Assembly (NCBI GenBank): GCA_030550775.1
Contig: JAUQOS010000016.1
Location: 1-34,609, forward strand
From: Armatimonadota bacterium
GTDB taxonomy: Bacteria; Armatimonadota; Fimbriimonadia; Fimbriimonadales; GBS-DC
DNA length: 34,609 bases
Reading direction: 5' to 3'
The stretch's first letter is position 1. Each line of letters starts with the position of its first letter. Position numbers and translations under genes: made by a program. This document shows positions 6,357 through 34,609 of the stretch, in pieces. A model generated the notes under the pieces. The model was not told where the DNA came from, made no database searches, and worked only from the letters and a program-made list of their open reading frames with translations.

Positions 6357-7172
6357 ATGTCACTATATACACTGCTGGAATGGTGGAACTTCATCTTTGC
6401 GCTGCCGTTGGCGGTGGGAGGGCTACTGTTGCTGGGCTCGGCACTCTCCGGGCTGATTGACCTCACGAACGGCGCCGAAGACAGCGACACCGCCGAAGCG
6501 GAGCATTCCGACGCTCACCACGATGCGGGGGGGCATCGTGCGGCAGCCGATGCTGTGCTCGACGCCGATCACGATACCCACGCACCCGTTAAAACGCCCT
6601 TCACCACCTCGGAGCACCACGAGGTCGACAAGCCATTGTGGCTAAAGCTGCTCAACCTGTTCGGCATTGGCATGGGGCTGCCGCTTTCAATGGCGCTGCC
6701 GCTGCTGATGATGGTATGGGGTGTGGCGGGGCTAATTAGCAACGGGGTGCTGGCACCACTGCTCAAGCTGCCTGCTCTTTATGCGCCCCTCTCAATGGTG
6801 GTTGCGCTGGTGGTGATGGCGTTCACAGGGCGCGCTGCAGGGCTAATTGTGCGACGCGTTCTGCGTCACGAAGCCACCCCGATTGTGGACAAATATGGGC
6901 TCATCGGCGCCACGGGGCGTGCGGTCTACGAAATCACTGCTGAAGGGGGCGTCGCCCACGTGCGAGACCCCTACGGCAACCTGCACCGCATCGTGTGCCG
7001 AACCGCGCCTGGTGAACCCACCATTCCTGCCGACACCCCTATCCTCGTAGTGCGCTACGACGAGCAAACCCACCTCTACTGGGTCGAGCGCAATCCACTG
7101 GAATTGCACGAGGACGAAACGCCTGAGGTACAATCCTCAGCGCAGCAAACACAACGTATCGGGGGACAGTAA
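6357..7172 (+). CDS. NfeD/YqiJ-like membrane protein, flotillin partner
   Basis: The 271-residue protein has hydrophobic segments at about 12-33, 100-127 and 135-165, followed by a soluble domain at about 175-250 (KYGLIGATGRAVYEI, then VRDPYGNLHRIVCR). This resembles the OB-fold of NfeD/YqiJ proteins, which sit beside flotillins and work with them in membrane microdomains. Between the first and second membrane segments is an unusual loop (about 39-88) rich in His, Asp and Glu (for example AEHSDAHHDAGGH), which may bind metal or simply be an acidic linker. The flotillin gene begins 12 bases downstream, so the two form an operon. Confidence 0.82.
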   Translation: MSLYTLLEWWNFIFALPLAVGGLLLLGSALSGLIDLTNGAEDSDTAEAEHSDAHHDAGGHRAAADAVLDADHDTHAPVKTPFTTSEHHEVDKPLWLKLLNLFGIGMGLPLSMALPLLMMVWGVAGLISNGVLAPLLKLPALYAPLSMVVALVVMAFTGRAAGLIVRRVLRHEATPIVDKYGLIGATGRAVYEITAEGGVAHVRDPYGNLHRIVCRTAPGEPTIPADTPILVVRYDEQTHLYWVERNPLELHEDETPEVQSSAQQTQRIGGQ

Positions 7173-7184
7173 GGAGGCATAAGA

Positions 7185-9020
7185 ATGCACACTTGGTTCA
7201 TCCTCATCGGCTTGGCGCTGATGCTGCTGGCAGGGTTCGGTGGCAGCTTTTTCGCGGGCTGGGGACCCATCCAGCAAACCATCTCCGCTGCCATCGGGCT
7301 ACTCCTGCTGCTCATCGGGTTCATCTTCCTGATGATTTCCAAGTTCTATGTGCGCCCATCTGCCAACATGGCGTATGTGCGCACGGGCTTTGGAGGACGG
7401 CGCGTGGTGCTAGATAGCGGAGCACTGGTGTTTCCGTATCTGCATACGCTGGTGCCCGTGTCGCTGGAGACGATGAAACTTGAAGTGGAGCGTAAAGGAC
7501 CCGACGCACTGATAACCCGCGACAACCTGCGCGTGGATGTGAAAGCCGAATTCTACATCAAAGTGCAACCGGAGGTGGACGCGATTTTGAATGCTGCACG
7601 CTCGCTGGGCGACAAATCTGTCAATGCGCAATCGGTGTCGCAGCTGGTGTTTGAAAAGCTCGTCTCGGCACTGCGCAGCGTGGCTGCCACCAAAGACTTG
7701 GTGGAGATCCACGCCCAGCGCGATGCCTTCGCCAGCAGCGTGCAACAGCTGGTGCGCGCCGACCTAGAACAAAACGGGCTAACGCTGGAGTCAGTCACCA
7801 TCTCGCGCTTAGACCAGACCTCGCAGGAGCTACTGTCAGATAACAACATCTTCGATGCCCAAGGCAAGCGTAAAATCACCGAGATTACCCAAGCCGCGCT
7901 GGTAGAGCGCAACCGCATCGAACAGGAGGCACGGCGCGAAATCACCCTCAAGAATGTGGAAACCCAGAAGGAAATTCTGGAGTTAGAGCGCCAGCGTGCT
8001 GAAGCTGAAGCCGCCCAGCAAGCCGAAGTCGCCAAAATTCAAGCCGAAAAGAAGCGCGAGGCAGACATCTACCGCATCGAGCAAGAGCGGCAAGTGCAAG
8101 AGGCGCAGATCCAGCAAGAGCAGGCGGTGCGCGTAGCCGCCATCGAGCGCGACCGTCTGTTGCTGCTCAAACAACAGGAACTCCAGAAAACGGACATCGA
8201 CCGCGAGAAAGCGGTGGAATTGGCGCAGCGCGAGAAGGAAATCGCTATCGCAGAAGCCGAGCGCCAGCGTGCCGAAGCCGAAAAGCAAGCCTTGGAGGCG
8301 CAAGCCGAGCGCGAACGCGCCAAACAGCAAATCATCACCGTCGAACAACTGGCAGCTGCCGAGCGCGAGGCGCAAGCCAAACTCATTGCTGCCAAGCAAC
8401 AAATCGAGCAGGAGCGCATCAAGCGCGAAACCGATGTGCAGGTGGCGGCGTTCGCGGAGGTGAAAAAAGCCGAAGCGCAAAAACAAGCGGCAGAGCTGGA
8501 AGCGCAGGCAATCCTCACGCGCGCCCAAGCCGAAGCCAAAGCCCGCGAGCTGGAAGCGCAGGGCGAAACCGCGCTCAAAATGGTCGATGTCAACATCGCC
8601 CGCGAACAGGTGGAAGTGGAACGCGCCCGCGTGGAAGTGGAACGCCAAGCCCTAGAGTACCGCCAAACCTACAGCGAAGCCGCGCTCAAGTTCGAAATCG
8701 AAAAACTCCGCATCGAGGCACAGCGCGATGTGCAAGTGGAACTCGCCCGCTCTATCGGCGAGTTCATGAGCCGCGGCACCATGAACATCTTTGGCGACCC
8801 CGAAACGCTGGCGCGCATGACCGAACAGTACGCCAAAGGCTTGGGGCTGGGCATGGCTATCGACGGCGCGCTGTCGGGGCTGCAAGCACTGGGCGACGGC
8901 AGCGGTAAACTCGGCGAAGTCGCTCAGCAACTGATGGCGATTGCCCAACGCATCGGTGCCGTGCGCATGCAAAGCCAAGTGGACGCCGCACAAAGCACGG
9001 AACCGAAAACCGAAGGCTAA
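7185..9020 (+). CDS. Flotillin-like (YqiK/FloT family) SPFH-domain protein
   Basis: Flotillins organise ordered membrane domains together with NfeD-type partners. The 611-residue protein starts at ATG after AAGGAGG. Two N-terminal hydrophobic segments (about 4-25 and 29-50) anchor it. The SPFH domain spans about 58-230 (NMAYVRTGFGGRRVVLDSGA near its start). Residues about 240-520 form a very long charged coiled coil rich in Glu, Gln, Ala, Arg and Lys, with many EAE, AEA and QAE triplets. The C-terminus (about 525-600) is a globular or amphipathic end with FGDPETLARMTEQYAKGLGLG, as in YqiK. Two hairpins follow the stop. Confidence 0.93.
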   Translation: MHTWFILIGLALMLLAGFGGSFFAGWGPIQQTISAAIGLLLLLIGFIFLMISKFYVRPSANMAYVRTGFGGRRVVLDSGALVFPYLHTLVPVSLETMKLEVERKGPDALITRDNLRVDVKAEFYIKVQPEVDAILNAARSLGDKSVNAQSVSQLVFEKLVSALRSVAATKDLVEIHAQRDAFASSVQQLVRADLEQNGLTLESVTISRLDQTSQELLSDNNIFDAQGKRKITEITQAALVERNRIEQEARREITLKNVETQKEILELERQRAEAEAAQQAEVAKIQAEKKREADIYRIEQERQVQEAQIQQEQAVRVAAIERDRLLLLKQQELQKTDIDREKAVELAQREKEIAIAEAERQRAEAEKQALEAQAERERAKQQIITVEQLAAAEREAQAKLIAAKQQIEQERIKRETDVQVAAFAEVKKAEAQKQAAELEAQAILTRAQAEAKARELEAQGETALKMVDVNIAREQVEVERARVEVERQALEYRQTYSEAALKFEIEKLRIEAQRDVQVELARSIGEFMSRGTMNIFGDPETLARMTEQYAKGLGLGMAIDGALSGLQALGDGSGKLGEVAQQLMAIAQRIGAVRMQSQVDAAQSTEPKTEG

Positions 9021-9034
9021 CCCCAAAGCCATAA

Positions 9035-9057
9035 GGGGCGGACTTTTAGCCCGCCCC
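9035..9057 (+). terminator. Hairpin after the flotillin gene
   Basis: GGGGCGG (9035-9041) pairs with CCGCCCC (9051-9057) around a loop with a short T-run. The hairpin is 14 bases after the flotillin stop and is likely a terminator or an mRNA 3'-end stabiliser. Confidence 0.6.
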
Positions 9058-9064
9058 CTAGAAA

Positions 9065-9108
9065 AAACCAACGGTGCAGTGGCATTTCTGCCATCGCACC
9101 GTTGGTTT
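9065..9108. terminator. Long bidirectional terminator hairpin
   Basis: AAACCAACGGTGC (9065-9077) and GCACCGTTGGTTT (9096-9108) form a perfect 13-bp stem. An inner TGGCA/TGCCA helix closes on the loop TTTC. A- and T-rich ends flank both sides, so it can stop the flotillin transcript on the plus strand and the PEP-CTERM transcript on the minus strand. Its inner core resembles the hairpin at 22109-22130. Confidence 0.8.
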
Positions 9109-9118
9109 GGCGATACTT

Positions 9119-9649
9119 TTAGCGGCGGCGCCGACGCAACGCCAGACCCGCCAAGCCCACGCTCAGTGCCGCTAGCGACGCAGGCTCAGGCACAGGCTCA
9201 ATCTGGGCACGGATTTCGCCGAAGGGGTAGCGCTGCGTGTGAATGTCCACATACCACATCCCGGCGAGGAACTCCTGCTCTTCGGAAGCGCTCAACACAC
9301 GCGTGTTGATAGAAAGCCACGAGCGCGGGTCGGGATCAAGGTCGTTGCGGTTCGCGTCACCAAGGAAGAAGCGGTTCGGACCATTCGTGCCTCGCGCCCC
9401 GTAGTGCACATTCGCAAACAAGATGTCGCTGTCGAAGCCTGTGGCATAAAGATAGATCGTCAACACTTTGGTTTGCTGATCGTAGTCGCCAAAGACTCGA
9501 CCCAGCACTGTGCTATCGGTGGGAGGCACCACTTCAGCTCCTGTCAGTGTCGCGCCGAAAGTCCAGATTTGCGCATGGAGTGTCAGCGTACCCAGCGCCA
9601 AGAACATACCCAAGGTTGCACAGAAGCGCTTTATGGCTATACCCTCCAT
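9119..9649 (-). CDS. Secreted CHRD-domain protein with PEP-CTERM sorting signal
   Basis: From ATG 9649 the protein has 176 residues: a signal peptide ending near LHAQ, a CHRD domain, and a C-terminal PEP-CTERM tail (VPEPASLAALSVGLAGLALR then arginines). The CHRD domain is shown by ATLTGAEVVPP, a VHYGARG-NG segment, EEQEFLAGMWYVDIHT and YPFGEIRAQ. PEP-CTERM tails are recognised and cleaved by exosortase, so the protein is likely exported to the surface or extracellular matrix. No exosortase is in the window. The ATG has no SD before it; instead GGAGGG lies just inside it, seven bases before an in-frame ATA that would begin IKRFCATLGMFLALG, a cleaner signal peptide. The true start is therefore uncertain. 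Confidence 0.88.
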   Translation of the reverse strand: MEGIAIKRFCATLGMFLALGTLTLHAQIWTFGATLTGAEVVPPTDSTVLGRVFGDYDQQTKVLTIYLYATGFDSDILFANVHYGARGTNGPNRFFLGDANRNDLDPDPRSWLSINTRVLSASEEQEFLAGMWYVDIHTQRYPFGEIRAQIEPVPEPASLAALSVGLAGLALRRRRR

Positions 9650-32115: not shown

Positions 32116-34520
32116 GTTTCAATGAGCACCCGCCCTTGGGGGCGAATGCTACCCGACGGGAGCGTAATCTACGTTGGCTCCAGCGACGATTATGACTCGT
32201 TTCAATGAGCACCCGCCCTTGGGGGCGAATGCTACTGTCCGATTTCGCGGACGTTTTGAACAAATGTGCGTTGAACGTTTCAATGAGCACCCGCCCTTGG
32301 GGGCGAATGCTACCCGCGATTTGAAGTAGCGGAGGTTGTCGATCTTCAGAAAGTTGTTTCAATGAGCACCCGCCCTTGGGGGCGAATGCTACTCACAATG
32401 AAGCAGCAAAGCGTCAAGCGCAACAAACGCGTTTCAATGAGCACCCGCCCTTGGGGGCGAATGCTACCCGCAACGGCGGGCGCGATGTTGAAGGTCCCAG
32501 GTGACTACAGTTTCAATGAGCACCCGCCCTTGGGGGCGAATGCTACTCCCACTACCTCAGGAACACAAGCTGAGCACTCACTACTGTTTCAATGAGCACC
32601 CGCCCTTGGGGGCGAATGCTACCCGCGCGAGAAAGCTCCGCCGCCTGAAGTTGAGGCGGAGCTGGGCTGTTTCAATGAGCACCCGCCCTTGGGGGCGAAT
32701 GCTACGCTCCGAACACACCGCGAGGGGAACACCCTCAAGGTGACGGGGGTTTCAATGAGCACCCGCCCTTGGGGGCGAATGCTACCTCTGTACCAAGGCG
32801 GACCCGAAAGGGTTCGGATTCCCAAGTTTCAATGAGCACCCGCCCTTGGGGGCGAATGCTACGCCCCGTCCATCGAAACCAACGTGAACGTGGACGAGGA
32901 TCCGTTTCAATGAGCACCCGCCCTTGGGGGCGAATGCTACAAAAAACTAGAGGACAACTTCTTCCATTGGATGGACAATCGCGTTTCAATGAGCACCCGC
33001 CCTTGGGGGCGAATGCTACCTAAGCTATTTGCCGTCTTCTCTGCGAATACAAGTATAGACGGGTTTCAATGAGCACCCGCCCTTGGGGGCGAATGCTACC
33101 CCGACGAACCACGATGGGAGTGGCCGCCGATTCACCAAGGTTTCAATGAGCACCCGCCCTTGGGGGCGAATGCTACGAGCTATTCCGAGAAGCAGCCAGG
33201 CGCGGACGACACCGCACCGTTTCAATGAGCACCCGCCCTTGGGGGCGAATGCTACCGGCATGTTTATCGCCGGGGCCGGTATAGCCGTTTGCATATAGTT
33301 TCAATGAGCACCCGCCCTTGGGGGCGAATGCTACATCTTCAAGCGGTGCGCGATCGGTCACGCTTGAAGCGGTTCTGTTTCAATGAGCACCCGCCCTTGG
33401 GGGCGAATGCTACGCGCGGGCGAATTGGAGGTAACCATGCCGCGAACCAAAAAACAGTTTCAATGAGCACCCGCCCTTGGGGGCGAATGCTACATCTTCA
33501 AGCGGTGCGCGATCGGTCACGCTTGAAGCGGTTCTGTTTCAATGAGCACCCGCCCTTGGGGGCGAATGCTACGCACAACAAACACAACAAGAAAAAGCTG
33601 CCGCGCAAAATAAGGCGGGTTTCAATGAGCACCCGCCCTTGGGGGCGAATGCTACTGGCGGAGTTGAAGCTTTGCTTTGCACGAGCCTGGTTTTGGGTTT
33701 CAATGAGCACCCGCCCTTGGGGGCGAATGCTACCTTCGCGAAAAGGCGAAGGTGCTTTGCCGAGCCTACAACCTTAAGTTTCAATGAGCACCCGCCCTTG
33801 GGGGCGAATGCTACAGCCTAGCTCGCGCTGGCGATGCCAATGCCGCCGAGAGTTTCAATGAGCACCCGCCCTTGGGGGCGAATGCTACGCGAGCTAAATC
33901 GCTTGAACAACTTGGCAACAACGGCGACGAGTTTCAATGAGCACCCGCCCTTGGGGGCGAATGCTACGACCTTAGGAAGCCAGTCTCCCCCGATATCTTC
34001 GTGATCCAGGTTTCAATGAGCACCCGCCCTTGGGGGCGAATGCTACTTTTTACCACCCAGCTGGCTCGTTGAACTCGTCGAGGAGGGCGTTTCAATGAGC
34101 ACCCGCCCTTGGGGGCGAATGCTACCTTGCCCCGACGGGACAAAGTTCCGTGGGGGTTTCAGCCAGTTTCAATGAGCACCCGCCCTTGGGGGCGAATGCT
34201 ACGCGAGCGAGATGGAGGTTCATATGGCACGCAAGAAGCAGCAGAAGGTTTCAATGAGCACCCGCCCTTGGGGGCGAATGCTACAGAAGGAAAGCCGTGC
34301 TCGGAAGCATCGATGGCACGCACCGTTTCAATGAGCACCCGCCCTTGGGGGCGAATGCTACGCAGTGTTATCGGTTGATGGTTGAAGCGCATCGGGCTTC
34401 GCCAGTTTCAATGAGCACCCGCCCTTGGGGGCGAATGCTACGCTCGCGTTTGCGCAGATGGCCTTTGCGGCACGGCAATTCAGGTTTCAATGAGCACCCG
34501 CCCTTGGGGGCGAATGCTAC
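32116..34520 (-). CRISPR. CRISPR array, 31 repeats of 37 bp, 30 spacers
   Basis: Every repeat reads GTTTCAATGAGCACCCGCCC then TTGGGGGCGAATGCTAC, and I saw no variant, not even at the ends. Inside the repeat CGCCC-TTGG-GGGCG can form a 5-bp hairpin, with GCA/TGC outside it. Spacers are 37 to 46 bp, most often 42. The reverse complement ends in ATTGAAAC, the usual crRNA 5' handle, so I infer transcription on the minus strand from the right end. Spacers 16 (33335-33376) and 18 (33494-33535) are identical. Spacers 17 and 27 carry an SD plus ATG. The varied spacer length and handle fit type III or type I-B/I-D; with no cas gene in the window the type is not settled. Confidence 0.98.
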
Positions 34521-34609
34521 GGTATAGCTTACCTCAAAACACCCCCCCTTTGTCAAGGGTTTTGCCCGTTTCTTAACAATTCGCCCGAATTTTGAACTCA
34601 GCGTTTGCG
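34521..34609 (-). promoter_or_regulatory. Probable CRISPR leader and promoter (incomplete at window edge)
   Basis: This A/T-richer segment on the right of the array contains, on the minus strand, TTGACA (34551-34556), a 19-base spacer with a run of seven G, and TAAGCT (34526-34531), pointing into the array. The position and direction match the handle-based orientation. The leader continues past the window edge. Confidence 0.6.

What the first reader, a model, noticed from the sequence alone, without database searches (positions are those of the whole stretch)
32116..34520. CRISPR array probably yields crRNAs antisense to target mRNA
Seen: the reverse complement of the repeat ends in ATTGAAAC, and a TTGACA-like promoter lies at the right end facing the array, so the array should be read leftward. 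Several spacers on the plus strand look like the sense strand of genes: 17 and 27 hold SD plus ATG, 4 starts TCACA-ATG-AAG, and every spacer has an open plus-strand frame. Inference: crRNAs would be complementary to phage mRNA, as RNA-targeting type III systems need. Many spacers are open on the other strand too, so openness alone is weak evidence; the start-site spacers carry the argument.
Basis: partly seen in the sequence, partly recalled or inferred. Interest (0 to 1): 0.68.

Follow-up and report, generated by a model that had tools for sequence, protein, structure and literature searches.

The report
Type III CRISPR array with antisense-biased spacers
This is an ordinary bacterial CRISPR memory array of the RNA-targeting (type III-B) kind; its guide RNAs are read right to left and, by roughly two to one, are the antisense of phage genes, the level of bias already known for such systems.

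Summary
The array is real: 31 identical 37-nt repeats and 30 spacers (29 distinct) at 32116-34520, ending a contig of a Fimbriimonadales (Armatimonadota) MAG. The same repeat and leader occur in two more arrays of this genome, and close variants in congeners. The leader lies on the right and the repeat ends in ATTGAAAC on the minus strand, so crRNAs should be the reverse complement of the plus-strand spacers. The genome has one Cmr/Cas10 (III-B) locus and a separate I-C locus with a different repeat. A closed congener (KatS3mg018) has this repeat family, a standalone Cas1c-Cas2c pair and III-B, but no detectable Cas8c, which ties the repeat to III-B. Antisense bias was tested three ways. Codon statistics make the plus strand coding for 66% of 192 spacers (56-75%; this array 81%, 58-96%). 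Spacers sharing target sequence agree in strand (5 of 5 pairs). Six protospacers of the congener's spacers, in phage contigs, are 5 of 6 antisense, without a TTC PAM. No protospacer was found for this array's own spacers. New member of a known kind.

The parts
32116..34520 (-). CRISPR array: 31 identical 37-nt repeats, 30 spacers; inferred to be transcribed leftward
   Evidence: Rfam CRISPR-DR9 aligns to all 37 positions on the minus strand, below its gathering score
34521..34609 (-). Leader (cut by the contig end)
   Evidence: Nearly identical leader beside the C64 and C78 arrays; homologous leaders at the same end of arrays in G003 and G010, where it follows Cas1-Cas2
34551..34556 (-). TTGACA (putative -35 element)
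   Evidence: kept in three species' leaders; not called by the promoter scan because of the 19-nt spacing
34526..34531 (-). TAAGCT (putative -10 element)
   Evidence: Read from the sequence; TAGACT in G010 and TAAACT in G003
32153..32198 (+). Spacer 1; plus strand encodes PDGSVIYVGSSDDYD, homologous to C64 spacer 6 and C78 spacer 9
33177..33218 (+). Spacer 14; shares 10 nt with C64 spacer 9 in the same orientation, joint reading frame NELFREAARRG
   Evidence: weak: 10-nt overlap
33335..33376 (+). Spacer 16, identical to spacer 18 (33494-33535)
33414..33456 (+). Spacer 17, holds GGAGGTAACCATG (start site on plus strand)
34203..34247 (+). Spacer 27, holds GGAGGTTCATATG (start site on plus strand)
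34362..34404 (+). Spacer 29; its last 18 nt are the first 18 nt of C64 spacers 15 and 16, same orientation

Best explanation
A CRISPR array that serves the genome's type III-B (Cmr/Cas10) effector. It is transcribed leftward from a leader at the right end; each crRNA carries the 5' tag AUUGAAAC followed by the reverse complement of the plus-strand spacer. Spacers are probably inserted at the leader by a standalone I-C-type Cas1-Cas2 pair without strand or PAM control, and those antisense to phage mRNA are then kept more often because only they let Cmr/Cas10 bind a transcript. Shown: the array; the leader's position and conservation; a separate repeat for the I-C system; co-occurrence with III-B in a congener that lacks detectable Cas8c; a statistical coding bias of about 2:1; congener protospacers 5 of 6 antisense. 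Inferred: leftward transcription, processing at the tag, which Cas1 feeds this array, and selection as the cause of the bias.
For: Array, leader and sister arrays. Cmr1, Cas10, Cmr3-6 on C84, Cas10 with GGDD. I-C operon on C135, whose leader is found complete on C141 beside a different repeat. Closed G010: this repeat family, standalone Cas1c-Cas2c, III-B, no Cas8c. Minus-strand repeat folds into a hairpin that leaves AUUGAAAC free, z -4.0. Plus strand coding: 0.66 (0.56-0.75) of 192 spacers, p 0.0017; I-C control 0.46, n = 27. Spacer pairs sharing target sequence within G000 and G010: 5 of 5 same orientation. Protospacers of G010 spacers in phage contigs: 5 of 6 antisense, none with TTC on the crRNA 5' side.
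Against: No protospacer for the window's own spacers. The I-C control is small, so the difference from it is not established. The C78 array alone shows no bias (0.54) and C64 little (0.60). No Cas6 of family PF10040 in the genus, so the processing enzyme is unknown. The link from the C14 Cas1 to the arrays is by homology only, because C14 breaks inside cas1.
Confidence: 0.78

Rival explanations
1. The array belongs to, or is shared with, the genome's type I-C system, which targets DNA, so strand does not matter and any bias is incidental.
For: The repeat and leader resemble those of the I-C system, and the standalone Cas1 and Cas2 are of the I-C type. In G000 both systems are present. G003 has the repeat family and Cas8c pieces but no Cas10 found, though it is only 84% complete.
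Against: The I-C operon has its own leader and repeat. G010 has the repeat family without detectable Cas8c. No TTC at six protospacers. Spacer length is broad, 37-46 nt.
Confidence: 0.12
2. There is no real antisense bias: the array is read leftward but spacers are a 50:50 mix, and the signals seen are chance or a composition effect.
For: Each test alone is weak: 5 of 6 protospacers is p 0.11 one-sided, 5 of 5 pairs p 0.03. C78 alone 0.54, C64 0.60. SD-ATG 4:3 in G010. Purine content also leans to the plus strand in I-C controls.
Against: Three different kinds of test agree, and the codon test holds without the window array, p 0.015.
Confidence: 0.1
3. The antisense bias is made at acquisition (spacers taken from RNA), not by later selection.
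For: A bias exists, and RT-Cas1 systems with such acquisition are known (PMC9048733).
Against: Both Cas1 families here are 335-355 aa with no fused reverse transcriptase; a separate RT gene was not searched for. The bias is partial, as expected from selection. In Thermus without RT, unselected spacers came from both strands (PMC7515739).
Confidence: 0.07

Closest known systems
Type III arrays with coding-strand bias, as surveyed in PMC8482600
   Same: Average 65% of type III spacers match the coding strand; here 66%. [quoted passage not shown] no shared PAM in six protospacers here.
   Different: Here the strand share is estimated from codon statistics plus a few protospacers, and the Cas1-Cas2 pair is of I-C type, standing alone.
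Thermus thermophilus type III arrays (PMC7515739)
   Same: Thermophile, type III, no reverse transcriptase fused to Cas1, antisense bias explained there by selection.
   Different: Bias there is very strong after infection; here it is about 2:1 in natural arrays, and selection is only inferred.
Marinomonas mediterranea III-B with I-F (PMC5576922)
   Same: III-B beside a type I system in one genome.
   Different: There III-B uses type I crRNAs; here the two systems have distinct repeats, and sharing was not shown.
Rfam CRISPR-DR9 (RF01322)
   Same: Aligns over all 37 positions on the minus strand.
   Different: 27.9 bits against a gathering score of 45, so not a member by Rfam's rule.

Membership tests
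CRISPR array | Regularly spaced near-identical repeats with distinct spacers and a leader at one end | tested here: met
   31 identical repeats, 29 distinct spacers of 30, leader shared by three arrays
Type III-B CRISPR-Cas | Cas10 (Cmr2) with Cmr1, Cmr3, Cmr4, Cmr5 and Cmr6 in the genome | tested here: met
   C84 locus; GGDD in Cas10
Type III-B CRISPR-Cas | The array lies next to the effector genes | tested here: not met
   The array ends contig C132, the effector is on C84. Arrays remote from the effector also occur in closed G010, so adjacency is not required here
Type III-B CRISPR-Cas | The effector loads crRNAs of this repeat | not testable with these tools
   Only co-occurrence: G010 has the repeat family and III-B but no Cas8c
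Type III-B CRISPR-Cas | Cas6 that processes the repeat | tested here: inconclusive
   No PF10040 match in 13 genus genomes; other Cas6 families not searched
Type III, RNA-targeting spacer set | Majority of crRNAs complementary to mRNA | tested here: met
   0.66 (0.56-0.75) by codon model; 5 of 6 protospacers of a congener
Type I-C array | Repeat and leader shared with the I-C cas operon | tested here: not met
   The C135 I-C operon leader is the C141 leader, beside repeat GTTTCAATTCTCACCCGCCCTTGGGGGCGGGTGCAAC
Type I-C array | TTC PAM on the crRNA 5' side of protospacers | tested here: not met
   0 of 6 protospacers of the same repeat family in G010; the TTC motif is from general knowledge
RT-Cas1 type III adaptation | Reverse transcriptase fused to Cas1 | tested here: not met
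   Cas1 proteins of 335-355 aa match Cas1 end to end; the C14 copy is cut at its C-terminus by the contig end

The most novel reading that the evidence does not exclude
In this genus a type I-C adaptation pair (Cas1c-Cas2c) has split off, acquired its own repeat and leader, and become a dedicated spacer supplier for III-B, working without an adjacent Cas4, without a fused reverse transcriptase and without a PAM, with crRNAs processed by an enzyme other than the usual Cas6 family.
Probability: 0.35. Interest if true: 0.42.

Novelty: new member of a known kind. Interest (0 to 1): 0.3.

Why it matters
It adds a little-studied thermophilic lineage to the evidence that type III spacers are mostly, but not always, antisense to phage transcripts. 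It shows that array orientation and strand bias can be estimated from array sequence alone, by coding statistics and by spacers that share targets. It also ties a phage group to this genus, which makes further tests possible.

Tried and rejected
BLAST of all 63 distinct spacers of this genome against phage records found nothing, and against the genus only weak chance-level hits outside the arrays. Exact and wobble-degenerate target patterns in IMG/VR gave nothing or chance hits: an 18-mer without further support and a WQVYSDPW motif outside real genes. tblastn of two joined spacer peptides against phages found nothing. I first took the leader-like end of the I-C contig C135 as a sign that I-C and this array share a leader; contig C141 shows that leader sits beside a different repeat, so I dropped this. 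Many G003 spacers look garbled and were left out of the pooled set. A plus-strand 516-aa ORF on L139 first made one protospacer look sense; the real gene there is the minus-strand capsid gene, so the call was changed. Because that change went in the favoured direction: without this spacer the count is 4 of 5. Two weak matches were left out as probable chance, L065_30 in purK of G012 and L067_29 on L141. Purine content favours the plus strand but leans the same way in the I-C controls, so it was not used.

Full report
What is there. The window is the whole of contig C132 of a 2.43 Mb MAG in 152 contigs. Positions 32116-34520 hold 31 identical 37-nt repeats and 30 spacers of 37-46 nt, 29 of them distinct. 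The same repeat occurs on C64 (17 copies), C78 (22) and at the end of C61 (one copy with one mismatch). Congeners found by name are Fimbriimonadales MAGs, among them KatS3mg016 (G003), JP3_11 (G005) and the complete genome KatS3mg018 (G010), so the host belongs to that order.

Orientation. The C132, C64 and C78 arrays carry nearly the same leader on the right, and homologous leaders sit at the same end of arrays in G003 and G010. In G010 and G003 one such leader lies directly downstream of Cas1-Cas2. The leader keeps TTGACA and a TAAACT-like hexamer facing the array in three species; the spacing of 18-19 nt is long, and a standard scan does not call it. The minus-strand repeat folds into a hairpin that leaves AUUGAAAC free (z -4.0; plus strand z -2.2) and aligns to Rfam CRISPR-DR9 over its full length, below the gathering score. 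All this supports leftward reading; there are no RNA data.

Which system. C84 encodes Cmr1, Cas10, Cmr3, Cmr4, Cmr5 and Cmr6, and Cas10 has GGDD. C135 encodes a I-C operon with Cas5c, Cas8c, Cas7c, Cas4, Cas1 and Cas2. The start of that operon's leader, at the contig end, is found again on C141 beside a different repeat, and the I-C operons of G007 and G009 run into their own repeats of that second kind. A second Cas1, on C14, is 65-70% identical to the standalone Cas1 of G010 and G003 but 53% to the I-C Cas1. Closed G010 has this repeat family in five places, the standalone Cas1c-Cas2c and III-B, but no Cas8c. So this repeat goes with III-B and, by homology, with the standalone adaptation pair. 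The link between C14 and this array is not seen directly, because C14 breaks inside cas1. No Cas6 of family PF10040 was found in 13 genus genomes, so the processing enzyme is open.

Antisense test 1, coding statistics. A codon model trained on 105 long ORFs calls the coding strand of 41-nt pieces of held-out genes correctly 78% of the time. For 192 spacers of this repeat family from four genomes, the estimated share with the plus strand coding is 0.66 (0.56-0.75), one-sided sign-flip p 0.0017. This array alone gives 0.81 (0.58-0.96), p 0.008; the set without it, 0.62 (0.52-0.73), p 0.015; 27 I-C spacers give 0.46 (0.22-0.72), too few to show a difference. G003 spacers from its better-looking stretches give 0.46 (0.26-0.68); they were kept apart because parts of those arrays look garbled, so the pooled figure is for G000, G010, G009 and G005 only. 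Open-frame counts do not separate the strands, and SD-ATG pairs, plus versus minus, are 5:0 in this genome and 4:3 in G010.

Antisense test 2, spacers that hit the same place. Within this genome and G010, the five spacer pairs that share target sequence are all in the same orientation; this shows strand agreement, not by itself which strand is coding. Spacer 1, C64 spacer 6 and C78 spacer 9 encode related peptides on the plus strand (SVIYVGSSDDYD, AVIYVGPSEEYD, SIFVGSSD; and direct reading), with synonymous and conservative changes.

Antisense test 3, protospacers. Spacers of G010 match contigs binned with G005. L137 and L138 are parts of one phage, since IMG/VR contig L142 overlaps both, and L137 has a terminase large subunit. 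L139 is a phage contig with a capsid gene. Six protospacers fall in genes: four match at 95-100% over most of the spacer, L065_30 at 100% over 28 of 39 nt, and L066_17 at 78% over 40 nt. Five crRNAs would be antisense to the gene and one, in a DNA methylase gene, sense. For L066_17 the gene call was changed during the work, from a plus-strand ORF to the capsid gene on the minus strand; the capsid match (E 5e-33) and the mostly third-position differences justify this, and without it the count is 4 of 5. None of the six has TTC on the crRNA 5' side, and no shared flank is seen. Alone, 5 of 6 is p 0.11.

How it most likely works. Spacers are inserted at the right end without strand control, transcribed leftward, and used by Cmr/Cas10 to bind phage transcripts; spacers of the wrong strand do not help and are kept less often. 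In Thermus without a reverse transcriptase, unselected spacers come from both strands and selection makes the bias (PMC7515739). A survey gives 65% coding-strand spacers for type III systems (PMC8482600), close to the value here. Selection is inferred, not shown.

Verdict. That is an ordinary property of type III arrays. The less usual part is that III-B seems to be fed by a standalone I-C-type Cas1-Cas2 pair with its own repeat.

Noticed in passing
L070 spacers 17-35 and L071 array 6726-9558 (G003, KatS3mg016): Spacers of 28-35 nt that look like near-random, CG-dense letters, beside normal ones; L069 spacer 10 looks like a mangled copy of spacer 6. Probably a consensus of reads with different spacers (assembly artefact).
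   Followed up: partly
Window 33335-33376 and 33494-33535; also C64 spacers 4/5 and 15/16, C78 spacers 14 and 19: Identical spacers within one array: duplications of repeat-spacer units.
   Followed up: no
All 13 genus genomes: No match to the Cas6 family PF10040 although type III-B is present in seven of them; the pre-crRNA processing enzyme is unidentified.
   Followed up: partly
G005 contigs C194 (L137), C231 (L138), C106 (L139); IMG/VR 3300020567_000271 (L142): Tailed-phage contigs binned with a host MAG and targeted by a congener's spacers; L142 joins C231 and C194. They identify phages of this genus.
   Followed up: yes
L067 spacer 26, C64 spacer 11, C78 spacer 7, window spacer 16: Spacers that are themselves strong inverted repeats, which would be targets at hairpins or terminators.
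   Followed up: no
C141 start (L112), C135 end (L033): The I-C array of this genome has its own related 37-nt repeat; the two repeat kinds differ mainly in the three bases before ATTGAAAC.
   Followed up: yes
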